From: Eubacteriales bacterium
GTDB taxonomy: Bacteria; Bacillota; Clostridia; Lachnospirales; Lachnospiraceae
Direction: 5' to 3'
Assembly: GCA_030524175.1 (NCBI GenBank)
Contig: JAUNHC010000001.1
Span: forward strand, 1 to 64,000
DNA: 64,000 nucleotides
Shown here: piece by piece, positions 34,511 to 57,653 of the stretch
Layout: the number at the start of each line of letters is the position of its first letter
Position numbering within the stretch: the first letter of the stretch is position 1
Translations under genes and position numbers: made by a program
The notes under the pieces: generated by a model
Told to the model about the DNA's origin: nothing
The model's database searches: none
The model's input: only the letters and a program-made list of their open reading frames with translations

Positions 34511-36949
34511 TTAGCTATTCTCGCCATTTCCCTTTGAGAGTCTTTTTTCATATGCCTTATTTGCCTTGAGATTGGCAAAGAATCCAACGATCACTTTACC
34601 AAAACCACGGAAGAAATGGCCGTTTACTGCTTGTACCACTCCATTTATCATGTCCATGCTTACCATTCCGCCTGTCATCTTTGCGATTGCCCGGAATGGA
34701 ATATTATATTGGAACAGAAGATTCAGATCAGGCTTTCCGGCCGCTTCATTCTTTTTCTTTCTGTTTGTCAATATTCTATATATGAACCTTGCCACAGGGC
34801 TTTTTGCATAATACATCTGGCAGACAGCATCATTGATCCCCAGCTCCCCTGACCATTTACCGTCAGGGATGGGATGCCCAAGGAGTGTCTCAAACTCCTC
34901 ATCAGATATCTGTTGTATGATTCCTGTGTAATAATAGGGCAGCTGTGCTGGATTATAAGGATATTCTGAAGTGGTCTCTTCCATTTCCAGTTCTTTTACA
35001 AGCCGGATATCACTGACACTGGCGCCCACCATGATCTGATAGGTCCCCATCTCCACTTCCCACTTGTTAGTTTTGATATTCCAGTAACGGAAGGTCTTGT
35101 CATCAAACGGTATGTGTACTATCTTGCTTTCTCCGGCTTTTAAGAATACCTTTTTAAAACCTTTCAATTCCTTTGACGGGCGGAATACAATGGCATTGGG
35201 AAGCCCCACATACATCTGTACTACTTCTGCACCGTCCCTGTCCCCTGTGTTTGTAACCGATACCTGGATTCCCCTGGAATCCACTTTTAAATCGGAATAG
35301 GTAAATTCTGTATAAGACAGGCCGAATCCAAAGGGATACTGCACCCGAACCCTGCTGGTGTCATAGTACCGGTATCCCACATAGATACTTTCCCTGTACT
35401 CTGCATTTCGCTCTGTGCTTGGGAAATATCGAAATGACGGTGAATCTTCATAACGAATCGGGTAGCTTTCCGCAAGACGTCCGGAAGGATTCACTTTGCC
35501 GCTTACAATATCCAGCATGGCACTGGCTCCTGCCTGTCCGGACAGGTATCCGTGCAGGATTGCCTTACAACAGGTATGCCAAGGCATTTCTATGGATGCT
35601 CCTGCACTTAATATACCTACGATGTTGCCGTTCACCTGTGCTATAGCCTGCAGAAGTTCAATCTGATTCTGGGGTATCCTCATATGAGAACGGTCCATGC
35701 CTTCTACTTCACTCATTTCGTCCAGTCCAAAGCAGTACAGGACTACATCCGCTTTCGATGCGGCATCCAGTGCTTCCTTCTTCAGAAGTTCGTCTGCGTC
35801 CCCTGTCCGCCGATATCCTTTGGCTGTACCAACGACCTTCCAGTCGTAATTTCCGATTGTTTTTTCGATTGTTTCTACGAAGGTAGGTTTTACCAGAGAA
35901 GACCCTGCTCCCTGATATCTTGGCTCCACTGCAAAATCACCAATGACAGCAACGGTACACCCCGCCTTCAGAGGCAGGATATGATCGGAATTTTTAAGCA
36001 GCACTGCACTTTCAGCAGCCGCGCGTCTTGCAAGCTCGTGGTGTTGTTTTTCATCATACGTCTCAGCCTTTGACCGGCGTTTTTCACTAAGTACCAACAC
36101 TGCGTCCAGCAGATCATCCACACAGGTGTCCAGCTCTTCCATAGAAAGACTGCCATCCTGAATTGCCGCCAGAATCTGCCTTGCAGAATCCAGTCCTGGA
36201 GTGGGCATCTCCAAATTTGACCGTGCCTGTACTCCCTTAATATGGTCATTGGAACCGCCCCAGTCTGTGATCACGATTCCGTCAAAACCCCATTCCTTCC
36301 GCAGTATGTCCAGCAGCAGATGCTTGTTTTCGTTTGCATAGACGCCGTTGACCTGATTGTAGCTCGTCATGATGGATTTTGCATTGCCTTCTTTTACAGC
36401 AATTTCAAATCCGGTTAGATAGATTTCACGGAGTGTCCGTTCATCCAGCACGGAGTTCATAGCCATCCGGCGAAGCTCCTGACTGTTTACCGCAAAATGT
36501 TTTGGACATGCATATACGCCCTGGCTCTGGATTCCTCTGATGTAAGAAGCCGCCATCTTTCCTGCCAGGTAAGGGTCTTCCGAAAAGTATTCAAAGTTCC
36601 TGCCGCAGAATGGATTGCGTTTGATGTTCAGCCCTGGTCCTAAGAGCACCTGGACATCCAGTACCGACGCTTCTTCCCCCAGTGCTTCCCCTATCTCCTG
36701 TCCCAGTTCTTCATCCCAGCTGTTGGCGATTGTTGCAACAGTTGGGAAACAGATGGCGGGAAGAGATTCATTTAACCCTAAATGATCTCCTGCCCCGGCC
36801 TGCTTACGGACACCGTGAGGGCCGTCTGCGCAGAATACAGAAGGGATATCCAGCCGCGGGATATCTCTGGTATCCCACTCTCCTTTTCCGCTTAAGAATG
36901 CAGCTTTTTCCTCTATCGTCATTTTCTCTATGATATCTTGATGTTTCAT
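34511..36949 (-). CDS. Cytoplasmic GH3 beta-glycosidase (module A)
   Basis: An 812-residue family 3 glycoside hydrolase in the usual order. The N-terminal barrel shows LGPGLNIKRNPFCGRNFEYFSEDP and CPKHFAVNSQE, with the expected nucleophile Asp in GFDGIVITDWGGSND. The GH3 C-terminal domain (AAESAVLLKNSDHILPL) and a fibronectin III-like domain (VSVTNTGDRDGAEVVQMYVG) follow, then an extra tail of about 140 residues starting near SDEEFETLLGHPIP. No signal peptide or clear membrane helix, so it probably cleaves imported beta-glycosides. The ATG at 36949 has GAGGAG upstream. The preceding GHKL kinase and LytTR genes, and direct repeats at 37058-37090, suggest two-component control. Exact sugar specificity unknown. 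Confidence 0.9.
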   Translation of the reverse strand: MKHQDIIEKMTIEEKAAFLSGKGEWDTRDIPRLDIPSVFCADGPHGVRKQAGAGDHLGLNESLPAICFPTVATIANSWDEELGQEIGEALGEEASVLDVQVLLGPGLNIKRNPFCGRNFEYFSEDPYLAGKMAASYIRGIQSQGVYACPKHFAVNSQELRRMAMNSVLDERTLREIYLTGFEIAVKEGNAKSIMTSYNQVNGVYANENKHLLLDILRKEWGFDGIVITDWGGSNDHIKGVQARSNLEMPTPGLDSARQILAAIQDGSLSMEELDTCVDDLLDAVLVLSEKRRSKAETYDEKQHHELARRAAAESAVLLKNSDHILPLKAGCTVAVIGDFAVEPRYQGAGSSLVKPTFVETIEKTIGNYDWKVVGTAKGYRRTGDADELLKKEALDAASKADVVLYCFGLDEMSEVEGMDRSHMRIPQNQIELLQAIAQVNGNIVGILSAGASIEMPWHTCCKAILHGYLSGQAGASAMLDIVSGKVNPSGRLAESYPIRYEDSPSFRYFPSTERNAEYRESIYVGYRYYDTSRVRVQYPFGFGLSYTEFTYSDLKVDSRGIQVSVTNTGDRDGAEVVQMYVGLPNAIVFRPSKELKGFKKVFLKAGESKIVHIPFDDKTFRYWNIKTNKWEVEMGTYQIMVGASVSDIRLVKELEMEETTSEYPYNPAQLPYYYTGIIQQISDEEFETLLGHPIPDGKWSGELGINDAVCQMYYAKSPVARFIYRILTNRKKKNEAAGKPDLNLLFQYNIPFRAIAKMTGGMVSMDMINGVVQAVNGHFFRGFGKVIVGFFANLKANKAYEKRLSKGNGENS

Positions 36950-37024
36950 GCCATATCTCCTCATAAAATAAAGTGCTTTTTTAGGAAACTCCATCATCAA
37001 CAGTGCTTATGCTCCTGTGACTAC

Positions 37025-37090
37025 TTTATCACATCGGGCATTTCTTGTCCTGATTTTGGCACAACAGGTATTTATATGGCACAACAGGTA
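37025..37090 (-). promoter_or_regulatory. Candidate LytTR operator and promoter of the module A GH3 gene
   Basis: A 14-bp sequence, TACCTGTTGTGCCA on the minus strand, occurs twice without mismatch (37077-37090 and 37057-37070), start-to-start spacing 20 bp. Such direct repeats with a GTT core are the hallmark of LytTR-family binding sites. A -10-like GATAAA (37025-37030) follows 28 nt after the second 11-bp repeat core. The site lies between the kinase stop and the GH3 start. The same arrangement precedes the module B GH3. Confidence 0.6.
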
Positions 37091-37093
37091 AGA

Positions 37094-38413
37094 TCAAGAG
37101 TTTTCTTGCTTTCGGGGAAGCAGGATTTTCAGCTCAAACCAGTGCTGATTCATCGTAATTGTTACAGCGCCTCCATATTTTTCAGCAGACTGCCGGATAC
37201 TTTTCAGACCGAATCCATGATTTTTCCGGTCTGTTTTCGTTGTTTCCGGTATTTCTCCAGGCGCTATTGCAACCGGATTCTCACAGTAATTGGCTATTTT
37301 AATAAAAACAAAATTCTTTTTTTCGGAAACAGAAATATGGATCAGGCGTTTCTCTTCCTCAGTTATTAAAACTACGTTTTCAATAGCATTGTCTATGGCA
37401 TTTCCAAAAATACTGCAGATATCTGTCACATGAAGGAAATCCAGCAGTTTTCCGTCGATGACATAGGTCATGCGGATATGGCTCTTTTTTGCCCGGAGAG
37501 ATTTCGCACCCAAAACTGCATCCAGAACTTTATTTCCTGTATCCATAGTTACTTCATTAGCATTCAGATCCTGTTCCATGGCATCCAGCCATTCTTTTCT
37601 TTTTCCTGCATCTGTTTCTGTTCTAAGACCGTCAATCTGATGTTTCAGGTCATGACATTTGATCTGTATCATTTCAATGTTATCCAAATAGTTCCGGTAC
37701 TGGTCATATTGGCTTTTCAAAACATTCTGCATGGCACTCATTTCTCTTTCTGCCGCATATTCGCATATCCTGCTCTGAAAGGCATAGAGAATGGCTACCC
37801 CCATCATATCAATCAACGTACGTATGATAAATACATCTGATTTGATATGTGTTGTGAACGGCGCGTTTGTCACCACAAAACTCATATTGCTGAACGCAAA
37901 TACCGCCACCACACATCCTACTGCAGCAAGAATTTCCTTCATGGACAATTGTTCCAGATAACTCTTTGAAAACATAGCCCTTTCCATAAAATAAGTAAAC
38001 ACAAAAACAAATGCAAAAACGATAACCAAAAGGACAGCCTTACCAAATTGCCAGGAAATCCCCATTGCTGTCAAATAGGTTTGTATCTGCCACTCCAGAG
38101 AAGCTGCAAGCTCTGCCAGCAGAAAAGCCTTTGCACAGCAGTACAGACATTCCTTTGCCGTAGTTTTTGCGCAGATCAGTATGAATAAATACATCAGGAC
38201 CGCTGCCATACTCATACATGGAATCCAAAGAATCGTAGGCAATCCTCCGGTCAGTTCCAAAAACAGTATTTGAATAAAAAGGGCCGCGGCACTTTTTAGA
38301 ATAAAACCCTTCTTGATCTCCGGGCCTTTTAGGAGTATCAGATAGACCATACAGGCCCCCCATTCGGCAAGTGCTGTATACATACGGGGAATGTCACGAT
38401 AAATTGATTCCAT
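37094..38413 (-). CDS. GHKL sensor histidine kinase, AgrC-like (module A)
   Basis: A 439-residue membrane kinase. The N-terminal half holds about six hydrophobic segments. The cytoplasmic half has the phospho-acceptor region IQIKCHDLKHQIDGL, an N-box FGNAIDNAIENVV and a G-box HGFGLKSIRQSAEKYGG, the pattern of HPK10/AgrC-type kinases that usually respond to peptides. The ATG at 38413 has a GGGGGAGG site and follows the LytTR stop by two bases. No AgrB- or AgrD-like gene is nearby, so the signal is unknown. Confidence 0.88.
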   Translation of the reverse strand: MESIYRDIPRMYTALAEWGACMVYLILLKGPEIKKGFILKSAAALFIQILFLELTGGLPTILWIPCMSMAAVLMYLFILICAKTTAKECLYCCAKAFLLAELAASLEWQIQTYLTAMGISWQFGKAVLLVIVFAFVFVFTYFMERAMFSKSYLEQLSMKEILAAVGCVVAVFAFSNMSFVVTNAPFTTHIKSDVFIIRTLIDMMGVAILYAFQSRICEYAAEREMSAMQNVLKSQYDQYRNYLDNIEMIQIKCHDLKHQIDGLRTETDAGKRKEWLDAMEQDLNANEVTMDTGNKVLDAVLGAKSLRAKKSHIRMTYVIDGKLLDFLHVTDICSIFGNAIDNAIENVVLITEEEKRLIHISVSEKKNFVFIKIANYCENPVAIAPGEIPETTKTDRKNHGFGLKSIRQSAEKYGGAVTITMNQHWFELKILLPRKQENS

Positions 38414-38415
38414 GT

Positions 38416-39123
38416 TCAGATTCCTCCCCCTATATAATCGGTCAGCTTTTCCATGAAATTTTTCCGGTTGATCCTGCTGACAGGTATTTCTCTCCCGCAT
38501 AGAATGCAATTATTTTCCCGCACTTCTTCCACATATTTCATATTCACAAGAAATCCCTTGTGAATCCGGCAGAAGTCATAAGGTTCCAGGAACTCCAATG
38601 CCTTTTTCATTGTCCCCCTTGTCTGGAGAACTCCTTTTTTCGTATTAAAATTCAGATAGTGGCCTGAACTCTCCACATAAAGGATTTCACTAATATCTAA
38701 CTTTTTTAATCCATTATCCGTGGTCACTGATATGTAATTGTGATGGTCAAGTTTAATTCGTTCGATGGCTTTTGTGATTTTCTGGGAAAAAGAAAAATAT
38801 TCCACAGGCTTCACCATATAATCCAACGCATCCACTTCATATCCCCGAATGGCATACTGCGTCATGTTTGTAATAAACATGATGATAACTTTTTTATCCA
38901 TCTCCCGTATTTTCTCCGCTGCTGTCATACCATCCATAAACTTCATTTGAATATCCATCAGGATAATATCATAGTCACCGGAATAATTCAGGGCTATCTC
39001 GTTCCCGTCCGAAAAAAATGTGACTTTTATATCAAGTGTACTTTCCTCGCGATAGCGGTTAATATAATTTTTTAGTTGCCTGGAATATAATTGCTCATCC
39101 TCAACAACAGCAATGTGAATCAT
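38416..39123 (-). CDS. LytTR response regulator (module A)
   Basis: A 235-residue regulator: receiver domain with VVEDEQ and the phospho-acceptor Asp in IILMDIQMKFMDG, then a LytTR DNA-binding domain (ISEILYVESSGHYLNF, FCRIHKGFLVNMKYV, IPVSRINRKNF). GAGGAG precedes the ATG. It is the first gene of the LytTR-GHKL-GH3 unit. The likely target is the direct-repeat site before the GH3 gene. Confidence 0.9.
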   Translation of the reverse strand: MIHIAVVEDEQLYSRQLKNYINRYREESTLDIKVTFFSDGNEIALNYSGDYDIILMDIQMKFMDGMTAAEKIREMDKKVIIMFITNMTQYAIRGYEVDALDYMVKPVEYFSFSQKITKAIERIKLDHHNYISVTTDNGLKKLDISEILYVESSGHYLNFNTKKGVLQTRGTMKKALEFLEPYDFCRIHKGFLVNMKYVEEVRENNCILCGREIPVSRINRKNFMEKLTDYIGGGI

Positions 39124-39429
39124 AAAATTCTCCTCATAGTAAAGCGCAGATAAGCTCCTGCGTAACATAGTTTTTTCTAATCACCTATTAAACGGACATA
39201 TCTGCTGACGCAGACGTTACTGATCATGAAAGCCCATTGCTTTGCACTCCCACAACCGCCGCTTATAGTAAATATAGCATACTTCCTTTCGAAGCGGAAG
39301 TCCGGATACACTTCCGCTGCTTTGTAATGCACCATGAATATTTCGCCTTGGTTGACAAAATTATTTGAGTGTAGTAAAGTTAAATCATAAAAATTCAACA
39401 GAAAAGGTGATGGAAGTCCGGCGTATCAG
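39124..39429. promoter_or_regulatory. Intergenic region with a plus-strand promoter
   Basis: No convincing gene. On the plus strand a consensus TTGACA (39352-39357) is followed 17 bp later by TAAAGT (39375-39380), a candidate promoter for a leader transcript reaching the methyltransferase gene. The left half presumably carries the LytTR gene promoter; only weak matches are visible there. A minus-strand open frame at 39177-39398 is judged not to be a gene. Confidence 0.45.
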
Positions 39430-39613: not shown

Positions 39614-39639
39614 GCCCAAATTTAAAGGAGAACATAACG

Positions 39640-46435: not shown

Positions 46436-48787
46436 TTAATCCGCTGTCAGTACCGTCATATCCGCCTTCTTGATCCTGCCTGCCGCCAGATAAGAACATC
46501 CAAGAAACAAAAGGATGACAATCAATCCCGGAAGGACGATGTTGGAAGGGGCAGGGCGGGAGGCAAAATTGCTGATTCCCCCAAGCCGCATCACAGCGGA
46601 GACAAATGGATCCGTAAGGGCCGCCGCCAATAGGGTTCCCCCCACAGCTCCAATGGCTGCTGCCATACCAAACCGCAGGGAAAATGTAATCCGAAGCATT
46701 CTGGTGGAACATCCCATGGATTTGTAGATGCCCAGATCCTTCTTCTCTGCTGTAAGGATCTTGCTTCCGGTCAAAATGGTTACGATTAATACAAATACGG
46801 CAATCATCCCATACATAAAGGCAAGAAGCCCATGCATGGCTGAGATGATTCCGAAAAGCCCCGGCCAGGAGTTCTCATGGACATGTACATCTCCGCCGTA
46901 GCTTTCAGTCAGCCCCTCTGTGACCGCTGCTCTTTGTGATGGGTCTGCAAGAAAATAGTGGTGGCACCAAAGCTGCGGTTTATCCTGCCCGATTGCAAGA
47001 TATCCTTCCCGGTTCATCCCAATGTTGGCTCCCATGTCATTGGCACAGTGGTAGATTCCGGAAACTTTAAACTCTCCATTTCCCACATCGCCCCGGATAG
47101 TCACATTGTCTCCGATGGATACCCCCAGATCAGAGGCAGCTGTCTCTGTCAGGACCACTTCATCCGCGCTGCGGCTGGTCCTTCCCTGACTGATATGGAA
47201 ACGCTCCGGATCGGTGATCACATTTGCTGTATAGTTGGTACCATTTACGGAAACACTTGGCATGGCTAGAAGATAGCTGTCTATGATATCCGTATAAGAA
47301 CGGACCATGTCCTCCATCTCTCCCGAGTCAAGTTCTCCCAGAGCCTGCACGCCGATGTCCAGATCCGCCGGGTTAAAGGCATCCATCATCCCCTTGCCCT
47401 CCGGCCCAAGCCAGGTATTCATCCGCCCGGCCAGGGAAGCGAAAAACACAAGCATTGCGGCGATCAGGCAGGCACTTGCATACCTCTTTTTTCCTGACAG
47501 AAGCTGTCTCAGAGCTAACCGGAAGGAAAGCCCTTCTATTTTCATCCGCAATTTCTTGCCCGGCTTCCATCTGATTTCTGTTGTTTCACCCCGGATGGCT
47601 TTCATAGGTGTGACTGAGATGATATTTCTCAACTTCAAAACTGTAAATCCCATAAGCAAAAGCAGGATTGCCGTAAAAGCTGCCAGACATGGCAGTACCG
47701 GCAAATCTCCGGGAAGGAGAAGCCCTGTGGTGGTAACAGTCATTTTTGCTGCCATTCTGGATGCCGGAAATGCCGCCAGAATCCCGGATAACATTCCCAC
47801 AAGCATAGCGATCAGATACTGTGCAAGCTGCAGCCGGATCAGTCCACTTCCCGTCATCCCAACGGTTTTCAATATCCCAAGATTTTTATATTCCTGTTCG
47901 ATCACACCGGAAATGCTGTGCCCCAGAACCACCATAGCTACAATCAGGAGAATAAGAGCAAAGGCTGCTAAAAGTCCGCAGAAAGCCTTTTGGAGGATTC
48001 CCATGAAGCCTTCGATGGCGTCTGCACTATGTATAAACTCCGTATACTGGGAGATGGGAGTGTTTTCATTCAGAAGCCTGCTGATGTCTGCGATACTGGC
48101 ATTGCTCCCAGCTTCTGTGAAAATGTGGATCATAGCTCCGTTTCTGGCTAAACTGTCCATGCCGGTTTCCGCAATGGCCCGAAGGATTGCCGTATAATCT
48201 CCTTCAGAAATCAAAAACCCTTTCATCCCGATCATGGAGCTTCCCATGAAGGGATCTTCATAGTATCCCGCAACCGTCAAGCTTACGTTCTGTCCTCCTC
48301 TTGCAACCGGAAAGCTGATACTGTCTCCAATCTGCAAATTCATGATAGAGACCATAGACGGCGATACATAGACCGTTCCGGCTGCAATCTCTTTTGGTGC
48401 CTCTCGGTAACCGGAAAAATTGTCCCGGAAAAAATGATATGTTTTATCCCCACTGCTCCACGGGATCAACTGGCCTTCACTGTCTGACTCCACACCGTTT
48501 GCCTCATAATCACAAAAGAGAAGGTTCTGTACTTCAGTCCTTTCAATCCCTTCCTGTGCCTCTATGCTGTCTGTCAAAAAATCCATGTCCGGCACATCAG
48601 CCACCCATGCGGTCAAATTCCCAAACCCTGTCCTTTGCATCTCCTGATGGATATAGCTGCTGCCCCTAAGATAAACGGTGAGGACAGTTGATAAGGAGAG
48701 CGATACCAAAAACAGCAGGATGGCGATTCCCAAAAGGCTGCCTTTATGCTTTCGGATTCCGGCCCGGAATAAGATTCTGTTTTCCAT
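46436..48787 (-). CDS. ABC transporter permease (FtsX/MacB type)
   Basis: A 783-residue permease with an N-terminal membrane helix, a large outer domain (about 45-260), three or four central helices, a second outer domain (about 480-640) and three C-terminal helices. This is the two-FtsX-domain arrangement of peptide, lipoprotein or antimicrobial-responsive exporters. FtsX-type stretches include EQEYKNLGILKTVGMTGSGLIRLQL and EKKDLGIYKSMGCSTRMLRITF. The ATG at 48787 has AGGAGG eight bases upstream and replaces a GTG three codons earlier. The partner ATPase is immediately upstream. Confidence 0.9.
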   Translation of the reverse strand: MENRILFRAGIRKHKGSLLGIAILLFLVSLSLSTVLTVYLRGSSYIHQEMQRTGFGNLTAWVADVPDMDFLTDSIEAQEGIERTEVQNLLFCDYEANGVESDSEGQLIPWSSGDKTYHFFRDNFSGYREAPKEIAAGTVYVSPSMVSIMNLQIGDSISFPVARGGQNVSLTVAGYYEDPFMGSSMIGMKGFLISEGDYTAILRAIAETGMDSLARNGAMIHIFTEAGSNASIADISRLLNENTPISQYTEFIHSADAIEGFMGILQKAFCGLLAAFALILLIVAMVVLGHSISGVIEQEYKNLGILKTVGMTGSGLIRLQLAQYLIAMLVGMLSGILAAFPASRMAAKMTVTTTGLLLPGDLPVLPCLAAFTAILLLLMGFTVLKLRNIISVTPMKAIRGETTEIRWKPGKKLRMKIEGLSFRLALRQLLSGKKRYASACLIAAMLVFFASLAGRMNTWLGPEGKGMMDAFNPADLDIGVQALGELDSGEMEDMVRSYTDIIDSYLLAMPSVSVNGTNYTANVITDPERFHISQGRTSRSADEVVLTETAASDLGVSIGDNVTIRGDVGNGEFKVSGIYHCANDMGANIGMNREGYLAIGQDKPQLWCHHYFLADPSQRAAVTEGLTESYGGDVHVHENSWPGLFGIISAMHGLLAFMYGMIAVFVLIVTILTGSKILTAEKKDLGIYKSMGCSTRMLRITFSLRFGMAAAIGAVGGTLLAAALTDPFVSAVMRLGGISNFASRPAPSNIVLPGLIVILLFLGCSYLAAGRIKKADMTVLTAD

Positions 48788-48799
48788 GCTCTGCACCTC

Positions 48800-49561
48800 C
48801 TACCATTGTAATCCGGAAAGCCATTGGCTGATTTTTTCTTCCCTCTGTCTGTCCTGTGCAGCCTGATAGGCAGGCAGCTCCAGTTCATCCAGGATCTTTC
48901 CGTCCTCCAGATACAAAATGCGGTTTCCTCTCAAAGCAGCCCTCAAATCGTGGGTTACCATCAGGATGCTCTGCCCGGACTGGTTTAACGCTGTCAATAG
49001 GTCCAATACCTCCCGGGTATGTGACCGGTTCAATGCCCCGGTGGGCTCATCCGCGAACAGAATTCCCGGATTACCAACCATGGCTCTTGCTATGGCTGCC
49101 CGCTGTGCCTCACCGCCGGATACCTGGGAGGGAAGGCGGTTCTCCGCCTTTTCTACCCCCATCTGGGTGAGCAGAGTCTGTGCCCGGCTCTGTATTTGTG
49201 AAGTGCTGCCCTTTCTGCTCACAAAGCCTGCTACAGCCACATTTTCCAAAAGTGTCAGGTTGCTGACCAGATGGGTCTGCTGGAATACAAAACCAAATTC
49301 CTCCGCACGAAGCTTTGCCATCTGTTTCTCTTTAAGCCCTGTGAGTTCCTTTCCCTGATAGGACACCGTCCCTTCTGTCACCGCATCCATTTGGCTCAGG
49401 ACATATAAAAGCGTGGACTTCCCCGCCCCGGATGATCCCATGATGATGGTAAAATCCTTATCAAAGATATCCACATCTATCTGATCCAGCACTTTATTTT
49501 TTACCTGCCCCTGTGTAAATACTTTAGTAAGCCCTCTGCCCTGCAATAACGCTTTTTTCAT
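48800..49561 (-). CDS. ABC transporter ATP-binding protein (MacB/LolD type)
   Basis: A 253-residue ATPase for the adjacent permease. Walker A GSSGAGKSTLL, Q-loop VFQQTHL, signature VSGGEAQRAAIARA, Walker B ILFADEPTGALN and VTHD are all present. The ATG at 49561 has AAGGAGG nine bases upstream and lies within the 3' end of the ligase gene, with 38 bp overlap. Twelve bases separate it from the permease. The pair probably exports a product or removes a toxic amphiphile. Confidence 0.93.
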   Translation of the reverse strand: MKKALLQGRGLTKVFTQGQVKNKVLDQIDVDIFDKDFTIIMGSSGAGKSTLLYVLSQMDAVTEGTVSYQGKELTGLKEKQMAKLRAEEFGFVFQQTHLVSNLTLLENVAVAGFVSRKGSTSQIQSRAQTLLTQMGVEKAENRLPSQVSGGEAQRAAIARAMVGNPGILFADEPTGALNRSHTREVLDLLTALNQSGQSILMVTHDLRAALRGNRILYLEDGKILDELELPAYQAAQDRQREEKISQWLSGLQW

Positions 49562-51002
49562 CCTGCCATACCTCCTTTTCTGCGTCAGATCCTCTTCTAC
49601 GCGCATTGGGATTGACTCCCGCGGCAGTAGCCAAATGGACAGGTCCGCTTGGCTTACTGCCTGTCAAAATCAGTGCTTTTTTCCCCGTCTTGGGATCTGG
49701 AAGGATCTCTGACACAAAAATCACGTAGAACTGTACATACTCCAATTTCTTCTCAGAAAGTATTTTTTTCATCTGAGCCAATATTTCTGTCCTGATATAT
49801 GCTTCCGATGCAGAATGGGAAATTTCAGCATACATCTCAAATGCGTCCTTCCCAACCTGCCGGAACTGATAATCCATAAGCCCCTCAATACAAAAGCCTT
49901 CAATAGCAAGGGGATGCAGGAACTCTTTGTTTCCGGAACCGTCTTCAAACCAGAGAATATCCTCATCTCTCCCCAGAAGTCCTACGGCTCTTGTGAATGG
50001 ATAGGAGCTGTTTTCACCGGCTGCCTGAAGCATTAGGCTGTCAGAGATACGGTAACGGATCAGCGGCTGTGCAAAGTTGTACAGGCAGGTTAGGTACATC
50101 ACGCCGCTCTCCACTTCAATGAGATTCATATCGTCGAAGAGGATCATCCCTTCCTCCGGGTTCATTTCCACTCCCAGTGTGAGGGATTCGCTGGCCCCAT
50201 AGAAATTGACTACCCCTGTTCCAAAGCTTTTCTCCAGATAGCTTCTAAGACTTGCCCCAAGAGGCTCCCCGCAGGAGATCACCCGCACCGCATTCACCTG
50301 AACACTCCCTTTTTCCACCAGTTCTGCAAGAATTTTGATAGCAGAGGGATAACCAATGATAATATTAGGGTTGAACTCTTTTATCTGCCGGATCCACTCA
50401 TAAAGGGGCATTTTAATATCCAGATACATCTGGCTCGCTCCCACTCCGTCGATCCCATCCCCCACAGCCATCGCACCCCCATAACGTCCGTCTGTGGCCG
50501 CAATATACACAATTCTGGGGCGCTTCGCCAGCAGGGACAGAATCTGGGGCATGGACATGTTCCACAGCGCTGCCCGGATCATCCCCAGAAGCATACTGTT
50601 CCATGCATCTTCGTCATATACAAAGTAACCGGGTTTTCCGGTGCTTCCGGAGGAATGCACCACATGGTATTTCCCTTTGTATGGTTTCCGGTCTGCTGAC
50701 TGTGCTGCATCAAATTCACGCAGCTCTCTTATATGTAAATCCTGAGGCACCACCAGCTCATCAAAATGCTCCAGAAATAGCTTTTTATCCATAGTCGGAA
50801 AACAGGAAAGGGGCAGCTCGTCTAATTGTTCTTCTGTGATTCCCGCTGCTTCAAAGGTTCTTCTGTAATAAGCAGAGTGTTCCCATGCATAGTGCAGCAT
50901 GTTCCTCAATTTTTTCTCCTGTAGACAGCGCATCTGCTTTGTGTCAAGCCTCGCCTGTCTTTTTAAACGATATAAATCCACCAGTGTTTTTATATAGTTC
51001 AT
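49524..51002 (-). CDS. Adenylate-forming ligase, phenylacetate-CoA ligase/CapK-like
   Basis: A 492-residue protein of the PaaK/CapK group. The N-terminal YAWEHSAYYRRTFEAAGI, FPTMDKKLFLEHFDEL and the adenylate P-loop-like HSSGSTGKPGYFVYD are typical; VISCGEPLGASLRSYLE and FYGASESLTLGVEM follow. Members activate carboxylic acids as acyl-adenylates, for CoA or for amide formation. The preferred ATG at 51002 has GGAGAG nine bases upstream. It overlaps the ABC ATPase by 38 bp and follows an Ntn amidohydrolase by 15 bp, hinting at synthesis and handling of an acylated compound. Confidence 0.85.
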   Translation of the reverse strand: MNYIKTLVDLYRLKRQARLDTKQMRCLQEKKLRNMLHYAWEHSAYYRRTFEAAGITEEQLDELPLSCFPTMDKKLFLEHFDELVVPQDLHIRELREFDAAQSADRKPYKGKYHVVHSSGSTGKPGYFVYDEDAWNSMLLGMIRAALWNMSMPQILSLLAKRPRIVYIAATDGRYGGAMAVGDGIDGVGASQMYLDIKMPLYEWIRQIKEFNPNIIIGYPSAIKILAELVEKGSVQVNAVRVISCGEPLGASLRSYLEKSFGTGVVNFYGASESLTLGVEMNPEEGMILFDDMNLIEVESGVMYLTCLYNFAQPLIRYRISDSLMLQAAGENSSYPFTRAVGLLGRDEDILWFEDGSGNKEFLHPLAIEGFCIEGLMDYQFRQVGKDAFEMYAEISHSASEAYIRTEILAQMKKILSEKKLEYVQFYVIFVSEILPDPKTGKKALILTGSKPSGPVHLATAAGVNPNARRRGSDAEKEVWQDEKSVIAGQRAY

Positions 51003-51017: not shown

Positions 51018-52109
51018 TTACTCCACCAAAATGGTATATCCCTGGTCATAATTTTCTCTGTGATAATAGGTCAGTTCCTTTGTCTCCTGGTTCATGACGA
51101 TACTCCACTCGGTGGATTCAAATTCACCAAAGTTGTCTTTGCTCACACTGTCAAGAGCATCCCTCACATGGGTTTCTGTCATCGTTTCCTGCCCTTCCAG
51201 CGCCTCATTCAGAATGTCATATCTGGAATGGGACTGAGATGTTCCAACCCCGTATTTTTCCCCTTCCGCCAGATAAAAGTTTGTGACAACGGGCGTTTCC
51301 GTGACTACCATCTCATTGTTTATATATTCCACCACCACACTGTTCCCCTTTGCATCGGAAAGGGCCAGATGGATCATCATCCCCATGGAAGCATGCAGGT
51401 CATACTGTGAGAGCAGTTCCAGCGCTTCCTCCACATCTGCCGCCTTGTCAAGGAGCAGACGGATGGCCGTCGTGGTGGTGATATCCGGTTTATCCGTATC
51501 CTGCTCTATGGTGTCAGAATCCTCGATCATGTTGACAGACACGGCAAAGCCTTTTTCATTCATGCCGTCTAAAGGCGCATACAGTCCGATGATCGCCTGT
51601 GCCGTATCCGGGAGGCTTGAAATGTCCAGTCCCCCGGCCTGTATGAAGTCCATGTTGACGGTGGAAACCGAGGCATATCCTTCTTCCGGCCTGGAGCTTA
51701 CGATCAGTGCATTACAGGTGTTCCAATCAAAGTTTCTTCCAAACAGATTTCCCCCTTCTGCATTTTTCACAGACAAGGTACTGCATCCGAATGGGCTTTG
51801 GCCCATGAGCAGTTTAGGAATATTGGAAAGAAGCGCGCTGCTTAAATACTCTACAACCCCATTATCAGAGGAGACGCCTCCCTGCTCCAGATACTCATCG
51901 AAACCGTAATTGCCTTCAAACCGGACCACGGATAGCCCTTCCTCCAGTGATTGGATTTTCGTATCCGGCTCAATATAATTTTTTTCCATGGTTTCTCCTT
52001 TTGCGGTTTCAGCCCGTATGGTATCAGATGGTTTTGTATTCTGTCCGCATCCGGTGACAGTTCCCAGTGCAATCGACATCAGGAATGCCATATATATTTT
52101 TTTCTTCAT
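51018..52109 (-). CDS. Ntn-hydrolase lipoprotein (linear amide C-N hydrolase/choloylglycine-like)
   Basis: A 363-residue lipoprotein: signal peptide with VTGC lipobox (Cys21), linker, then a domain starting at FGCSTLSVKNAEGGNLFGRNFDWN. Cys109 in this motif aligns with the nucleophilic cysteine that becomes N-terminal in choloylglycine hydrolases and acyltransferases, with Arg and Asp (RNFDW) next to it. Internal placement after a 108-residue leader implies either autocleavage or activity without it. Plausible substrates are linear amides such as N-acyl amino acids or bile amides. It heads an operon with a ligase and an ABC exporter; two candidate promoters and a shared 28-bp motif lie upstream. 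Confidence 0.83.
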   Translation of the reverse strand: MKKKIYMAFLMSIALGTVTGCGQNTKPSDTIRAETAKGETMEKNYIEPDTKIQSLEEGLSVVRFEGNYGFDEYLEQGGVSSDNGVVEYLSSALLSNIPKLLMGQSPFGCSTLSVKNAEGGNLFGRNFDWNTCNALIVSSRPEEGYASVSTVNMDFIQAGGLDISSLPDTAQAIIGLYAPLDGMNEKGFAVSVNMIEDSDTIEQDTDKPDITTTTAIRLLLDKAADVEEALELLSQYDLHASMGMMIHLALSDAKGNSVVVEYINNEMVVTETPVVTNFYLAEGEKYGVGTSQSHSRYDILNEALEGQETMTETHVRDALDSVSKDNFGEFESTEWSIVMNQETKELTYYHRENYDQGYTILVE

Positions 52110-52287: not shown

Positions 52288-52392
52288 AATAATAGACTTG
52301 ACTAGGATATATCAATGCATTTTTGAGGATTACCAATAAACAAGATTTCATTCTCCTTTTTTAAATTCAAATACGTCTTGGCATATGATAAA

Positions 52393-52417: not shown

Positions 52418-52438
52418 CAGTCGTTTTTTCACTCGTTA

Positions 52439-55400
52439 CTATTCACAGCCCTGTGGGCCGCGCTTTGGAACTACTTCAATGGTAACTTTTTTTCTTTTTT
52501 TGAAATAACGTACCAGCACAAGTGTCATGATTCCAAGGGATACTACTGCTACAGCAGCATCAATACCAATAAACAGCTTTGTCATATTTGGCATTTTTCC
52601 TGCATTGGGATCAGGAATCGTATAGTTTCCGCTGTTGACCGTTGTATAAAGGATATTTTTGCAGGCCTGCCGCATGGCTAGTACCATAGTTGCAGAAGTA
52701 TTTGTGATCTCATTGGACTTCTGCGTTCCAAATCCAAGCATCGCATCATTTCCGTTACGGACAAAGTCATCGGTGTTCTGATAGCCATAGGAGCCATTCC
52801 AGTCGGATAATACCATGCCCCTAAATCCCCATTCGTCACGTAAGACGTTGTTTAACAGATTCGGATTTGCCCCGGTAGAGCGGGGTCCGATAAAGTTAAA
52901 AGAGGACATCACAGCCAGAGACTTTCCGTCATAATTTTTGACACAAATTTCAAAAGGTTTTAAATAGGTTTCCCGGATCACCTGCTCATCGGAATAGGTT
53001 AAGAGGAGGGAACAGCGGTTGGTTTCCTGGTCATTCAGTACAAAATGTTTGATGTATGGATAAACACCTTTTGTTGTCATACCATTCACTGTATTGGATG
53101 CGATATATCCTGAGAGGACGCCATCTTCGGAATAATACTCAAAGTTACGGCCGGTAAAAGCGCTGCGGTGGATGTTCATGGCCGGTGCATAAGCCCCAAA
53201 AATACGGCAGTCTGCATATTCCTGACCTTCAGCTTCCCCGATACGATAAGCCAGGTCTTTATTCCAGGTCTGCGCGATGAGCAGTTCTGTGGAAAAAGCA
53301 GTACCATACACTTGAATGTACCAGTCATTCAGACCAGAGGTGCCATCGGAATCCAGTGTTTCAACCTTTCCAATGGAATCCACGGCAACGGTCTGGAAGC
53401 CGCCCAGGTTGACCATATCGATCATGTCTTCCACAGATAACTGGTCCAGCAGGTCATCCCATAAGGGGTCTTCATATTCCTTCCCCGTCAAATCTGCTGC
53501 AGTCACCCCATTATCTGCCTCTGTGACAGGCATGGTGTCCTCTTCGTTATCATATTTTGTAGAATCATAATGGGCTACGGTCTTTTCTGCAACTGCTGCT
53601 TTCGTCTCCTCGTCCATGACATACATATCATCAGAGGGCGCTGCTGTTGCCGCACTGTAGTTGGCAAAACCGTCTGCCCGGGACAGATAGGTTACCTTTC
53701 CGGCAGAATAATCCTGGAACTGGTTCACCGCTGCGGTGTCATCCGAAGCACGTCCCTGTGTTTCATAATTCATGTCTGTATCTACGGAAAACGTCTCTTC
53801 GTCCAAAACTGTATGGGCATCTGAGCGGATGGAAAGGCTGTAATCCCCTGCTTCCAGTACATAACCGCCATGTTCAGTCTTGATACCTTTGGAATCATAA
53901 GCCGCCATCTCTTCCTTTGGAATTTCAAAGGATATGGTTTCGGAATCCCCTGGCTCCAATAATTCTGTCTTTCCAAATTCAATCAGGTTGACAGATGCTT
54001 TTTCAATCCCGCCATTATTATAAGGAGGGGTAAAATAAAGCTCTACTACTTCTTTGCCTGCTGTTTCTCCTATATTGGTGACTTCCACATCTACCGAAAC
54101 GGTATCCCCGTTGTCTGTAAAATTTTTCATTTCCTGTGTGAATGTGGTGTAGCTAAGTCCATAGCCAAAGGGATACTGCACATGGTCTTCATATTGAATC
54201 AGCCCTTCTTCTGCCGCTGTCTCATAGAATTTATATCCCACATAGATATTCTCCACATAGTTGACGAAAGGCAGGACACCCTGATATGCTTCGTCCGCTT
54301 CTGTAAGTTCTGCGCGCAGGTCATCCACATTGTTATAGAGGAAGCTCCCGTAATTGTTATAAGTCGGGGTGCTTGTCAGATCATATACATAGGTATCTAC
54401 GGTTCTTCCTGACGGATTGACAGCGCCATTTAAAATCTCTCCCAGTGCTGCCATTCCCGTTTTTCCAGGGCCCGGTGCCAGGATCACAGAACCGATATTC
54501 TCATACTCATCTACCCAGCCAAGTTCCATGGGGTTATTGGCGTTGATGACAACCACAACCTGTTCAAACTCAGAAGTCACTTTCTCGATCATGGCTTCTT
54601 CTGTGTTGGAAAGCTCCAGATAGCTCTCCCCTGCATCGAAGTCATCATAGTCGCCGTTATTGGTGTAATTACAGGAAAAATAGTTGTACTGTTCATTTCC
54701 GTTAGCCACTTCATCACGAGGGTCGTATGTACCGTCAATGACGGCCTTCATATCAAGTGGAACATCCTGTCCCTCTCCGCCGGATCTGGAAATGACGATC
54801 ATCGCTGTATCGGAAAAGTCCTTTGCATCCTTCATCAGTTCATCGGTGTAATAATCTACCGTCGGCTCCGGCAGAGACCAGTCTGTGAATGTTACGCTGA
54901 CCACATTCCCGCCAAGATTTCTTGTGGGGCTGTACTCTTTATACATGTCAACTAGATTTTGGTTCACATGGAAGCCTGCATCTGTAAGGGATGCCAGAAT
55001 ATCCACATTCCCTGAGTTGTCTGCCGACCCGGAACCTGTTCCGCCATAGATCGGGTTCGTGGATGCCCATCCAAACACATTCAGATTGGAGTCCTTATCA
55101 AGAGGCAGCATCCCGTCATTTTTCACCAGTGCCATTCCCTCTTCCCCGGTTTCTTTGATAATTTCTTCTGAAGCTTTGATGGATTCTTCTGATACGGAAC
55201 CACGCCCGTTCAGTATGGGTGCCAGATTGTTATACATTGGTCCAAAGCAGATGATGTTGGCCAAAACAGTGACGATCAGCACCCAGGCAATGCCCGCTCC
55301 CCACCGTACCACGTGGCGGGTGCCTTTTTTAACCAGCCAGTGAGCCGCGATTATGATAATAACGGCGACAGCCAGTGTACCCAGAATGGCGTATATATAA

Positions 55401-55495
55401 CCTCCCAGTGAATTTACATACTGCTGGACATCTGTGGGGCTGACACCCATGTTTTCAAAAATCGGTGTGAGCCAGTCAATTAGAAACTGTAACAT
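52439..55495 (-). CDS. Membrane-tethered GH3 glycosidase with permuted domain order (module B)
   Basis: A 1018-residue enzyme. Two N-terminal membrane helices (about 33-53 and 66-85) enclose a basic loop (KKGTRHVVR). Next comes the GH3 C-terminal-type domain (GMALVKNDGMLPL, then VVVINANNPMELGWVDEYENIG), then a fibronectin III-like domain (VEVTNIGETAGKEVVELYF). The catalytic barrel comes last (MNIHRSAFTGRNFEYYSEDG, IKHFVLNDQE, nucleophile Asp in FRGMVLSDWNGSYG). A final membrane helix precedes a basic tail. This reversed order is known in some rumen and gut beta-glucosidases. The positive-inside rule places the enzyme outside the cell, anchored at both ends. GGGAGG precedes the ATG. Downstream of a GHKL-LytTR pair, as in module A. 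Confidence 0.88.
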   Translation of the reverse strand: MLQFLIDWLTPIFENMGVSPTDVQQYVNSLGGYIYAILGTLAVAVIIIIAAHWLVKKGTRHVVRWGAGIAWVLIVTVLANIICFGPMYNNLAPILNGRGSVSEESIKASEEIIKETGEEGMALVKNDGMLPLDKDSNLNVFGWASTNPIYGGTGSGSADNSGNVDILASLTDAGFHVNQNLVDMYKEYSPTRNLGGNVVSVTFTDWSLPEPTVDYYTDELMKDAKDFSDTAMIVISRSGGEGQDVPLDMKAVIDGTYDPRDEVANGNEQYNYFSCNYTNNGDYDDFDAGESYLELSNTEEAMIEKVTSEFEQVVVVINANNPMELGWVDEYENIGSVILAPGPGKTGMAALGEILNGAVNPSGRTVDTYVYDLTSTPTYNNYGSFLYNNVDDLRAELTEADEAYQGVLPFVNYVENIYVGYKFYETAAEEGLIQYEDHVQYPFGYGLSYTTFTQEMKNFTDNGDTVSVDVEVTNIGETAGKEVVELYFTPPYNNGGIEKASVNLIEFGKTELLEPGDSETISFEIPKEEMAAYDSKGIKTEHGGYVLEAGDYSLSIRSDAHTVLDEETFSVDTDMNYETQGRASDDTAAVNQFQDYSAGKVTYLSRADGFANYSAATAAPSDDMYVMDEETKAAVAEKTVAHYDSTKYDNEEDTMPVTEADNGVTAADLTGKEYEDPLWDDLLDQLSVEDMIDMVNLGGFQTVAVDSIGKVETLDSDGTSGLNDWYIQVYGTAFSTELLIAQTWNKDLAYRIGEAEGQEYADCRIFGAYAPAMNIHRSAFTGRNFEYYSEDGVLSGYIASNTVNGMTTKGVYPYIKHFVLNDQETNRCSLLLTYSDEQVIRETYLKPFEICVKNYDGKSLAVMSSFNFIGPRSTGANPNLLNNVLRDEWGFRGMVLSDWNGSYGYQNTDDFVRNGNDAMLGFGTQKSNEITNTSATMVLAMRQACKNILYTTVNSGNYTIPDPNAGKMPNMTKLFIGIDAAVAVVSLGIMTLVLVRYFKKRKKVTIEVVPKRGPQGCE

Positions 55496-55547
55496 TTTTC
55501 TTCCTCCCTTTCCTTGATTAAAATACTTAATTCATTACGTTGTCCTC

Positions 55548-55614
55548 ATTATAATCAAGTGAAAGGGCAAAACCGGGATTTGCGAAAAGTGGTCGTTTTT
55601 TTACGATAACCGGT
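55548..55614 (-). promoter_or_regulatory. Candidate LytTR operator and promoter of the module B GH3 gene
   Basis: On the minus strand ACCGGTTATCG (55604-55614) and ACCACTTTTCG (55583-55593) form an imperfect direct repeat, 8 of 11 identical, exactly 21 bp apart start to start. A perfect TATAAT (55548-55553) follows 29 nt after the second repeat. The first repeat shares an ACCnGTTnT core with the module A repeats, where the -10 lies 28 nt downstream. The layout fits activation by a LytTR dimer. Confidence 0.6.
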
Positions 55615-55624
55615 AAGCAGGCTG

Positions 55625-56947
55625 TTATGCTTCTTCCTGTGAAGGCAATAGGATATCAAGATTGAACTTGCCGTTTTTTAATGACATAAAAAGCTCCCCA
55701 TGATATTTCTCCACGATATAGCGCATACTCTTCACTCCAAACCCATGCTGTGATCTGTCTTTTTTATCTGTGACCGGAATTCCATTTTCAAACTGGAGCA
55801 TACGGCTGCACCTGTTTTCCAGATGGATCAGCACCATGTCATTGTGGTGCCTGATCTGGAAGCTGATAATCCGTTCCCCCTTTTTTTCCTTCATCACCCG
55901 TTCCAGTGCATTATCCAGAGCATTCCCCATCAAGGCATACACATCGGCAGATGCCATGTAGGAGATCATCTTTCCCTCCACCATGCAGCCAAACTCAATT
56001 CCCCGTTCATCAAAAATCAGTGTTTTTTCCCGCAGCACATAATCCAGGGCACTGCAGCCGGTATGGTAGGTGGCATCGTAAATGGATACCGCTTCCCGGA
56101 TTTCCTGTATATACTCTGACCTGGATCTGTCATCTTCAATCTTTGCCAAAGCCTTCATCTGATGCTTCAGATCATGGCATTTCATGTTGATGATATCTAT
56201 GGCTTCCTTTGAGCTTTTCTGCTGCGCGGTAGATATCTGGAGAAGCTGTTCCATCATTTCCTGTTCCCGTTTCATGCTGTTTTCCCGGAGTACATAATAC
56301 TCCATCAGCAGGACAAGGGCACAGCATAAGAAGCTGTATGCCGGGCAGATCACATCTCCCATCGGGGTACCCATATACTCTTCGGGATAAGACCAGTAAA
56401 CACTGAAACCAATGGCAAAGACCATAATGATAAACGCAAGCACAACAATCCGGAAATCACCGTCACTTAATTGATTGGCTTTTTTATTGGGCTGTATAAT
56501 CAAAAAATACACAACCGCCGCTCCAACCAGATAAATCACATACCTGGTAAGCAGCAGATGAGGCAGGCTTCCATATAGCGGATAAAGGTTATGAAGCTTC
56601 TGCAATATAATCCGGGAAATTGCAAAAATCATATGCTCCGTGGCATATCCGCCCGCCAGAATAAAGATAAGCTCACGCAGTTCTAAATCAAAGCTGCCCC
56701 ATATAGGGATAGCTGTGAAAAATGCAAAACCCAGGTACAGCAGCATATAGTAGAACAAGGATGTGGATTCGTAGGGTGTAAGTACCGCATTCCACAAAGC
56801 ACTTAATAAAATCTGAAGCAGGAAACCAGTGAGCAGCCTTGGCAGGAAATGTGTTCTTTTTGGGCTGTCAGTCAAAAATACCGCTTCTGAGACAAGAAGC
56901 TGAAATGGAAACTGGATAAAAATAGCTTCAAAAATACCGTATAACAT
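55625..56947 (-). CDS. GHKL sensor histidine kinase, AgrC-like (module B)
   Basis: A 440-residue kinase with about six or seven N-terminal membrane segments. The cytoplasmic part has INMKCHDLKHQMKALAKIEDD, N-box MGNALDNALERVM and G-box HGFGVKSMRYIVEKYHG. Its layout matches the module A kinase closely, though sequence identity is modest. The ATG at 56947 follows the LytTR stop as TGATATG with GGAGG upstream. No peptide-signal genes are seen nearby. Confidence 0.88.
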   Translation of the reverse strand: MLYGIFEAIFIQFPFQLLVSEAVFLTDSPKRTHFLPRLLTGFLLQILLSALWNAVLTPYESTSLFYYMLLYLGFAFFTAIPIWGSFDLELRELIFILAGGYATEHMIFAISRIILQKLHNLYPLYGSLPHLLLTRYVIYLVGAAVVYFLIIQPNKKANQLSDGDFRIVVLAFIIMVFAIGFSVYWSYPEEYMGTPMGDVICPAYSFLCCALVLLMEYYVLRENSMKREQEMMEQLLQISTAQQKSSKEAIDIINMKCHDLKHQMKALAKIEDDRSRSEYIQEIREAVSIYDATYHTGCSALDYVLREKTLIFDERGIEFGCMVEGKMISYMASADVYALMGNALDNALERVMKEKKGERIISFQIRHHNDMVLIHLENRCSRMLQFENGIPVTDKKDRSQHGFGVKSMRYIVEKYHGELFMSLKNGKFNLDILLPSQEEA

Positions 56948-56948
56948 A

Positions 56949-57653
56949 TCATAGGCCTCCCATATAGTTGATGTAATCCTGTGCAAACTGTTTTTTTAGC
57001 CTTCTGGAGAGCGGCAGTTCCTGTCCGGATGTGAGTGTCACACTGTCTTTCCCAATCCGTTTTATGTAATTGAGATGGACCAAACAGCCAGAATTGCACT
57101 CCGAAAAAGGCAGGGATGTAAGCTTCACTTTTATATCTTTCAGGCTTCCCCGCATTTGGGAGCATCCCTGTTTTGTATAGAACACAAGATAATCCCGGTC
57201 TTTCTCTATGTACAGGATATCCGACACCGTGATCCGGAAAATCCCCTCTTTATTGCTGATCAGAATATCCTGCTCCCGGTGGCTTTCTATAAAGCGGAAT
57301 GCTTTTTGCAGCTTTATGGAAAAATTGTAGTAGCCGACTGGTTTCACCATGAAATCAATAGCCTGCACTTCATACCCGTCTATGGCGTACTGTGCCAGGC
57401 TGGTGATAAAAATAATCCCCACCGCCTGATCCCTGCTGCGTATTTCACGGGCTACCTCAAGACCATTACTGCCCGGCATCTCAATATCCAGAAAAATAAC
57501 ATCATATTCTCCCTGATAATCTTCTAGAAAGTCAAAACTTGCATAGAATATTTTTATCTCAAAAGTTAGGTTCTGTTCCTGCTGAAACTGCTCCAGATAG
57601 GAAAAGATACGCTGCACATCCTCTTTTGAATCATCCACCACTGCTATTTTCAT
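56949..57653 (-). CDS. LytTR response regulator (module B)
   Basis: A 234-residue regulator: receiver domain with VVDDSKED and the acceptor Asp in VIFLDIEMPGSNG, then LytTR domain (VSDILYIEKDRDYLVFYTKQG, CLVHLNYIKRI, LPLSRRLKKQF). AGAGGAG precedes the ATG. A strong promoter is at 57700-57745. It is the first gene of the LytTR-GHKL-GH3 module B. Confidence 0.9.
   Translation of the reverse strand: MKIAVVDDSKEDVQRIFSYLEQFQQEQNLTFEIKIFYASFDFLEDYQGEYDVIFLDIEMPGSNGLEVAREIRSRDQAVGIIFITSLAQYAIDGYEVQAIDFMVKPVGYYNFSIKLQKAFRFIESHREQDILISNKEGIFRITVSDILYIEKDRDYLVFYTKQGCSQMRGSLKDIKVKLTSLPFSECNSGCLVHLNYIKRIGKDSVTLTSGQELPLSRRLKKQFAQDYINYMGGL

What the first reader, a model, noticed from the sequence alone, without database searches (positions are those of the whole stretch)
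34511..57653. Two LytTR-GHKL-GH3 signalling/glycosidase modules in one locus
The order LytTR regulator, GHKL membrane kinase, GH3 glycosidase occurs twice on the same strand (39123-34511 and 57653-52439), about 13 kb apart. The kinases and regulators are co-translated in both. The two GH3 enzymes are not recent copies: one is cytoplasmic in the usual order, the other is extracellular, membrane-tethered and permuted. Conserved gene order with diverged enzymes suggests a selected unit: a quorum- or glycan-sensing system with a dedicated glycosidase output. There is no agrB/agrD-like gene, so the signal might be a glycan or peptidoglycan fragment that the GH3 modifies. I know of no described system of this form, but cannot search.
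Basis: partly seen in the sequence, partly recalled or inferred. Interest (0 to 1): 0.75.

Follow-up and report, generated by a model that had tools for sequence, protein, structure and literature searches.

The report
Two-component switches controlling membrane-side GH3 glycosidases
A gut bacterium carries two copies of a conserved gene module in which a membrane sensor and its DNA-binding partner appear to switch on sugar-cleaving enzymes; relatives of the module occur in distant bacteria, some of them beside genes for handling a rare form of galactose, and the natural substrate is unknown.

Summary
The window holds two LytTR-regulator/GHKL-kinase/GH3 modules: one with a canonical GH3 (cGH3*), one with a permuted GH3 with membrane helices at both ends (pGH3). 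In this genome 7 of 25 LytTR-GHKL pairs lie within 4 kb of a GH3 (0.63 expected). Related modules occur in Bacillota and Actinomycetota; full versions add a GtrA-like membrane protein, a GT2 glycosyltransferase and sometimes UDP-galactopyranose mutase. Of 44 GH3-linked regulators, 42 fall in one clade. A paired LytTR-type site lies between kinase and GH3: a perfect 14-nt direct repeat in module 1, a weaker variant in module 2. In loci not used to find it, the site precedes 12 of 28 pGH3/cGH3* genes against 1 of 171 others. Quorum sensing is not supported: in this genome agrB sits only beside other kinases. Whether the enzymes remodel a membrane glycoconjugate (perhaps with galactofuranose) or cleave external glycosides is open. 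The paper searches made did not turn up a description of the module.

The parts
38416..39168 (-). Module 1 response regulator: receiver + LytTR domain (likely start 39123)
   Evidence: Pfam PF00072 and PF04397; falls in the GH3-linked LytTR clade
37094..38509 (-). Module 1 GHKL sensor kinase, about five or six membrane helices (likely start 38413)
   Evidence: Pfam PF14501 108.7 bits; hydropathy
37057..37090 (-). Module 1 LytTR-type operator: perfect direct repeat of 14 nt, period 20
   Evidence: 0 of 20,000 dinucleotide shuffles of the 144-nt region reach a 14-nt run; highest of three window hits at score 13
34511..37000 (-). Module 1 canonical GH3 with folded helical C-terminal extension (cGH3*); no membrane helix by hydropathy (likely start 36949)
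   Evidence: Pfam, hydropathy, alignment A8, AF2 model mean pLDDT 89.2 with helices between 700 and 823
56949..57653 (-). Module 2 response regulator: receiver + LytTR domain
   Evidence: Pfam; in the GH3-linked clade; nearest relative among those held is that of L203, 68.5%
55625..56986 (-). Module 2 GHKL sensor kinase (likely start 56947)
   Evidence: Pfam PF14501 89.5 bits
55581..55615 (-). Module 2 candidate LytTR-type operator: two 14-nt half-sites, period 21, TCG variant, followed by a TATAAT
   Evidence: matrix score only 7.8 and not reached in the window scan at 13, but the same variant stands upstream of pGH3 in L203
52439..55495 (-). Module 2 permuted GH3 with membrane helices at both ends (pGH3)
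   Evidence: Pfam, hydropathy, alignment A1, catalytic residues

Best explanation
Each module is a self-contained two-component switch. A multi-pass GHKL kinase senses a still unknown signal and phosphorylates its LytTR regulator, which binds a paired direct repeat just upstream of the GH3 gene and turns it on. The output is GH3 beta-glycosidases on the two sides of the membrane (pGH3 outside, anchored at both ends; cGH3* inside, in fuller modules closely coupled to a GtrA-like membrane protein). In full modules these act with a GT2, probably a galactofuranosyltransferase, and UDP-galactopyranose mutase on a membrane glycoconjugate, perhaps a glycolipid, that is built, flipped and trimmed on demand. 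The two window modules are reduced versions: one keeps cGH3*, the other pGH3. Shown by sequence and comparison: gene order, regulator clade, operator, intact catalytic residues, membrane helices, GT2-mutase association. Inferred: signal, activation rather than repression, sidedness, substrate, glycolipid.
For: Regulation: 42 of 44 GH3-linked LytTR proteins from Bacillota and Actinomycetota in one clade of 48 rows, support 93/96. Operator score >=12 upstream of 12 of 28 pGH3/cGH3* genes against 1 of 171 unlabelled genes in loci not used for the matrix (P 6e-11). Perfect repeat in module 1; regulator-matched variant in module 2. The same kind of site stands upstream of agrB in this genome. Published repeats of LytTR Regulatory Systems are separated by 11-13 bp upstream of the -35 (PMC6193735, passages). 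Membrane: hydrophobic helices at both ends in 110 of 126 pGH3 of 850 aa or more. Of 52 cGH3* genes, 46 have a same-strand next gene; it is GtrA-like in 34, in 30 of these overlapping or within 29 nt. 26 of 26 GtrA-like proteins scanned (of 34 labelled) match PF04138 at E<=0.1, not all above the curated cut-off. Galactofuranose: mutase in 9 of 15 named loci with GT2 and 2 of 64 without (P 1e-6); mutase in 27 of 28 genomes with GT2 and 26 of 168 without. Lipid hints beside stand-alone GT2: a family in 16 loci whose representative has a weak PAP2 match, a diacylglycerol-kinase family in 8, an LPG_synthase_TM family in 4. Of 95 operonic neighbours scanned (of 119), 3 are MFS_2 sugar transporters and no ABC-permease, solute-binding or PTS family reaches two members.
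Against: No mutase, GT2 or GtrA gene lies in either window module, so the glycoconjugate reading rests on relatives. The closest solved relatives are mostly named beta-glucosidases, and I recall no galactofuranosidase in GH3. GT2 mostly lacks the membrane helices of GtrB-type partners (16 of 19 have none). The lipid neighbours are weak evidence: PAP2 scores 19.8 bits against a cut-off of 27.2, the diacylglycerol-kinase loci come from only two genera, and housekeeping-looking families (for example a 412-aa one in 9 loci) recur just as often there, so shared synteny may explain them. In 25 of 31 loci around GT2 matches of the order no mutase lies within seven genes. Related regulators also sit in a plant-glycan-like cluster (L065: GH43, GH2, rhamnosidase, MFS_2). 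Most GH3 upstream regions have no strong site (78 of 101; 16 of 28). 7 of 26 family loci with pGH3 have no LytTR or GHKL anywhere in the stretch fetched, and of 79 named loci 38 have neither within six genes, loci cut by contig ends included. LysR (8 loci), AraC (4) and ABC-ATPase (8) families also recur near pGH3/cGH3*. Among non-family genomes the mutase association is modest (5 of 6 against 26 of 168, P 7e-4).
Confidence: 0.4

Rival explanations
1. The modules sense and hydrolyse external beta-glycosides (plant glucosides, saponins or oligosaccharides). The kinase detects the compound or its product, pGH3 cleaves it at the surface and cGH3* inside; the galactofuranose genes are a side association. 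The regulatory part is the same as in the best explanation.
For: Closest solved relatives are mostly beta-glucosidases; the best NCBI model for cGH3* is an exo-alpha-L-arabinopyranosidase, far below its cut-off (742.7 against 1300 bits). GH43, GH2 or MFS_2 genes lie in several loci, and two GH43 genes (L093, L089) have an operator-like site. Several paralogous modules with diverged sensor halves (18% mean identity against 39% in the kinase halves of six kinases) fit many ligands.
Against: Few sugar transporters among operonic neighbours (3 of 95); GtrA, GT2 and mutase are hard to place in a catabolic locus; pGH3 is fixed in the membrane at both ends.
Confidence: 0.37
2. An envelope-stress system: the kinase senses membrane damage or an antimicrobial, and the GH3/GT2 genes alter surface glycolipids as protection.
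For: Membrane placement of pGH3; one regulator inside the clade (L047) sits beside an ABC ATPase and an FtsX permease; ABC-ATPase genes of mixed type recur in 8 loci, the window included.
Against: L047 has a long branch; the ABC genes are not one conserved partner.
Confidence: 0.11
3. The regulator-kinase pair is an agr-like peptide quorum sensor with GH3 as one output.
For: LytTR regulator plus GHKL kinase with a multi-pass sensor half is the AgrA/AgrC architecture (architecture recalled); the operator is of the general LytTR kind.
Against: In this genome AgrB occurs at two other pairs only, whose regulators fall in another subclade. No recurrent neighbour family listed looks like AgrB; AgrB was not searched for in the other genomes.
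Confidence: 0.05
4. Chance neighbourhood of abundant gene families.
For: 31 LytTR, 38 GHKL and 24 GH3 matches in this genome alone.
Against: Enrichment in this genome, dedicated clade, operator, repetition in other phyla.
Confidence: 0.01

Closest known systems
agr-type LytTR/GHKL two-component systems (AgrC-AgrA; recalled, with passages of PMC4227749)
   Same: GHKL kinase with multi-pass sensor half, receiver-LytTR regulator, paired direct repeats at the target promoter
   Different: No agrB next to these pairs in this genome; output is a GH3 glycosidase set; the regulators form their own clade
LytTR Regulatory Systems (LRS, passages of PMC6193735)
   Same: LytTR regulator; repeats separated by 11-13 bp upstream of the promoter
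   Different: LRS pair a LytTR regulator with an inhibitory membrane protein; here a GHKL kinase and a receiver domain are present
Permuted GH3 beta-glucosidases (PDB 5wug, 5k6l)
   Same: Sandwich before barrel, as the match ranges imply
   Different: Here a membrane helix at each end and genetic linkage to a two-component system
GtrA/GtrB and GtcA-type surface glycosylation (recalled)
   Same: GtrA-family membrane protein next to a GT2 in fuller modules
   Different: GT2 mostly without membrane helices, no third transferase recognised, two GH3 enzymes instead, mutase association
Gram-positive polysaccharide utilisation loci (recalled)
   Same: Regulator plus glycoside hydrolases in a cluster
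   Different: Recurrent core holds no uptake system but a glycosyltransferase and a GtrA-like protein

Membership tests
agr quorum-sensing system | GHKL kinase paired with receiver-LytTR regulator | tested here: met
agr quorum-sensing system | AgrB peptidase next to the pair | tested here: not met
   this genome: AgrB only at C9:79.6k and C87:77.9k
agr quorum-sensing system | AgrD-like signal peptide gene | not tested
   short ORFs not searched
LytTR-regulated promoter | two direct repeats 11-13 bp apart upstream of the target | tested here: met
   module 1 clear, module 2 weak; spacing from PMC6193735 passages; binding itself not testable here
LytTR Regulatory System (LRS) | LytTR regulator with an inhibitory membrane protein and no kinase | tested here: not met
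   GHKL kinase and receiver domain present
GH3 glycoside hydrolase | barrel and sandwich domains with catalytic Asp and Glu | tested here: met
   Asp in 127 of 129 and Glu in 124 of 129 pGH3; both invariant in 30 cGH3*
GH3 glycoside hydrolase | hydrolytic activity on a beta-glycoside | not testable with these tools
   needs purified enzyme
Permuted GH3 | sandwich before barrel | tested here: met
   module 2 only
GtrA family (relatives) | match to PF04138 | tested here: met
   26 of 26 scanned at E<=0.1, some below the curated cut-off; fold search gave no significant match (best E 1.3, a dolichyl-phosphate mannose synthase)
GtrA/GtrB glycosylation | GT2 partner with C-terminal membrane helices | tested here: not met
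   16 of 19 GT2 without a predicted helix
GtrA/GtrB glycosylation | third, acceptor-specific transferase nearby | tested here: inconclusive
   none among families shown (25 of 127; all families with two or more members are among those shown)
Polysaccharide utilisation locus | dedicated uptake system in the core | tested here: not met
   3 of 95 operonic neighbours MFS_2; no other transporter family with two or more members

The most novel reading that the evidence does not exclude
The full module is a regulated, lipid-linked galactofuranose pathway in which GT2 and the mutase make a galactofuranosyl lipid, the GtrA-like protein flips it, and the doubly anchored permuted GH3 takes the place of the usual outer transferase (transferring or trimming the sugar outside) while cGH3* recycles it inside; paralogous kinases tune it to different signals.
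Probability: 0.12. Interest if true: 0.8.

Novelty: new variant of a known kind. Interest (0 to 1): 0.6.

Why it matters
It ties a clade of uncharacterised LytTR-GHKL systems of gut and other Gram-positive bacteria to one class of target with a readable operator, so targets can be predicted and signals screened. It gives a testable role for double-anchored permuted GH3 enzymes and for a conserved GT2 that tracks UDP-galactopyranose mutase. If the glycoconjugate reading holds, it would show how these bacteria adjust membrane sugars in response to a signal.

Tried and rejected
Agr-type quorum sensing: disfavoured for lack of AgrB. GH43 as galactofuranosidase evidence: dropped, because the closest solved GH43 is an arabinofuranosidase/xylosidase. 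A first LytTR tree used wrong frames for four rows and was replaced. The script failed because the gene caller missed an overlapping kinase; one search replaced it. The first count of mutase without GT2 (2 of 65) included L122, which has no recognised pGH3 but has a GT2; recounted as 2 of 64 among 79 loci, or 9 of 17 against 2 of 63 when cGH3* also anchors the count. Names first given by eye (PAP2, lipid kinase, FtsX, rhamnosidase, GH43, mutase) were scanned afterwards: PAP2 is below its cut-off, the others above. The GtrA fold search gave no significant match. Literature, passages only: PMC11418510 (GtrA and GH3 genes up-regulated in bifidobacteria, listed apart); PMC12188725 (another GHKL gene); PMC4227749 (AgrA repeats); PMC6193735 (LRS repeats). 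Searches whose listings and abstract starts showed no description of the module: (no paper); the library lacks most subscription journals. The operator is not specific to this clade: 25 hits at score 13 in 411,530 bases of this genome, one upstream of agrB. One search is partly circular (half-sites picked from the same loci, leave-one-locus-out); one search is the test on new loci. Rows dropped: upstream regions under 60 nt; L205 and L223 as duplicates of named loci; LytTR proteins outside 180-320 aa from the named loci; 24 of 119 operonic neighbours were not given.
Full report
What is there. Pfam confirms two regulator-kinase-GH3 sets on the minus strand: receiver-LytTR 38416-39168, GHKL kinase 37094-38509, canonical GH3 34511-37000; and receiver-LytTR 56949-57653, GHKL kinase 55625-56986, permuted GH3 52439-55495. 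The permuted enzyme has two hydrophobic helices near its N-terminus and one at its C-terminus. Here cGH3* means the canonical-order GH3 with a C-terminal extension, which the AlphaFold model folds as helices between 700 and 823 (mean pLDDT 89.2); pGH3 means the permuted, doubly anchored GH3.

Same genome. The genome (5.95 Mb, 119 contigs) has 38 GHKL, 24 GH3 and 31 LytTR matches. Of 25 LytTR-GHKL pairs, 7 lie within 4 kb of a GH3 (0.63 expected, P 2e-6) and 8 within 8 kb (1.13 expected, P 9.5e-6). Two further modules, in C71:64-84 kb and C71:88-108 kb, read LytTR, GHKL, pGH3, cGH3*, GtrA-like, GT2 with one or two extra genes between. On the tree of 30 own LytTRs the eight GH3-adjacent ones need 2 changes (7.2 in shuffles; 0 of 500 as low); two of the eight (C9, C23) stand apart from the other six.

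Relatives. One scan with the pGH3 alignment kept the best 80 of at least 588 related stretches, in Bacillota and Actinomycetota with one spirochaete contig; it is not a random sample. 79 contain a recognised pGH3. Within six genes of it there is a LytTR in 35, a GHKL in 39, both in 33, either in 41, cGH3* in 30, GtrA-like in 29, GT2 in 15 and mutase in 11; many loci are cut by contig ends. In a sample of 120 genomes of the window's family, 17, its own included, have a strong pGH3 match. All 28 foreign matches were fetched; two duplicate named loci. Of the other 26, 15 have both LytTR and GHKL within five genes, 19 at least one, and 7 have neither anywhere in the stretch. In a tree of 70 LytTRs, 42 of 44 GH3-linked ones fall in one clade of 48 (93/96); of the six other rows in it, four lie in the same kind of locus but more than four genes from the GH3, and two (L047, L050) are from this genome without a GH3 in the stretches read.

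Operator. Between kinase and GH3 of module 1 stands a perfect 14-nt direct repeat with period 20 (37090-37077 and 37070-37057); 0 of 20,000 dinucleotide shuffles reach a run of 14. A weight matrix from such half-sites, leaving the tested locus out, scores 12 or more upstream of 23 of 101 pGH3/cGH3* genes and 5 of 468 unlabelled genes, two of the five being GH43 genes. In new loci it does so for 12 of 28 against 1 of 171 (P 6e-11). Module 2 scores only 7.8 but shows half-sites 55615-55602 and 55594-55581 with period 21, of a TCG variant; L203, whose regulator is the nearest among those held (68.5%), has the same variant upstream of its pGH3. Published repeats of LytTR Regulatory Systems are separated by 11-13 bp, most often 10 bp upstream of the -35 (PMC6193735, passages). 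The site is of a general LytTR type: one also stands upstream of agrB in this genome.

Chemistry. pGH3 keeps the presumed nucleophile Asp in 127 of 129 and the presumed acid/base Glu in 124 of 129 sequences, with helices at both ends in 110 of 126 of 850 aa or more; the roles of these residues are recalled. The gene after cGH3* is GtrA-like in 34 of 46 cases with a same-strand neighbour, 52 in all. The GT2 family is well conserved (62% mean column identity over 15 rows). Mutase identity is firm: PF03275 above cut-off in all 10 scanned of 11, TIGR00031 428 bits against 303.75 in the one tested. Mutase lies in 9 of 15 named loci with GT2 and 2 of 64 without. GT2 occurs in 28 of 196 genomes of the order, mutase in 27 of those 28 and in 26 of the other 168. 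The 22 own-family genomes with GT2 are exactly the 22 own-family genomes with mutase; how many own-family genomes lack both is not shown. The 6 GT2 genomes outside the family give 5 of 6 (against the same 26 of 168, P 7e-4). In the 31 loci around GT2 found by that search, 6 have a mutase within seven genes, and PAP2-like (16 loci, representative below cut-off), diacylglycerol kinase (8 loci, two genera) and LPG_synthase_TM (4 loci) families recur, as do housekeeping-looking genes. So GT2 is a candidate galactofuranosyltransferase, and a lipid acceptor is a guess.

Reading. The sensor halves of six related kinases share 18% identity on average against 39% in the kinase halves, as expected if each senses something different. 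The best-supported claim is that each regulator directly controls its neighbouring GH3; direction of control is inferred. The substrate is open: a membrane glycoconjugate (slightly preferred) or external beta-glycosides. The searches listed in Tried and rejected showed no description of this module.

Noticed in passing
L065 (C17:61185-81184): A regulator-kinase pair of the same clade sits in a plant-glycan-like cluster with GH43, GH3, GH2, alpha-L-rhamnosidase and an MFS_2 transporter, so this regulator type may also serve polysaccharide use.
   Followed up: partly
L067:9335-14256: Two tandem, very similar GH3-like proteins of about 807 aa with signal-like N-termini next to a module whose regulator belongs to another LytTR group.
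   Followed up: no
L165, L172-L186: Stand-alone copies of the GT2 lie beside PAP2-like and diacylglycerol-kinase genes in several genomes of the family; synteny may explain part of this.
   Followed up: partly
window 972-4481: A 1169-aa protein with a GH106 alpha-L-rhamnosidase match (50.7 bits) at the edge of the window.
   Followed up: no
window 51018-52109: A lipoprotein-like choloylglycine-hydrolase/acyltransferase family protein directly downstream of module 2.
   Followed up: no
window 46436-49606: An FtsX-type permease and its ABC ATPase a few genes downstream of module 2; L047, a LytTR of the same clade, also sits beside such a pair.
   Followed up: partly
L078:6420-6455: A LytTR-type paired site upstream of this genome's longer agrB gene, usable as a positive control for the motif.
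   Followed up: partly
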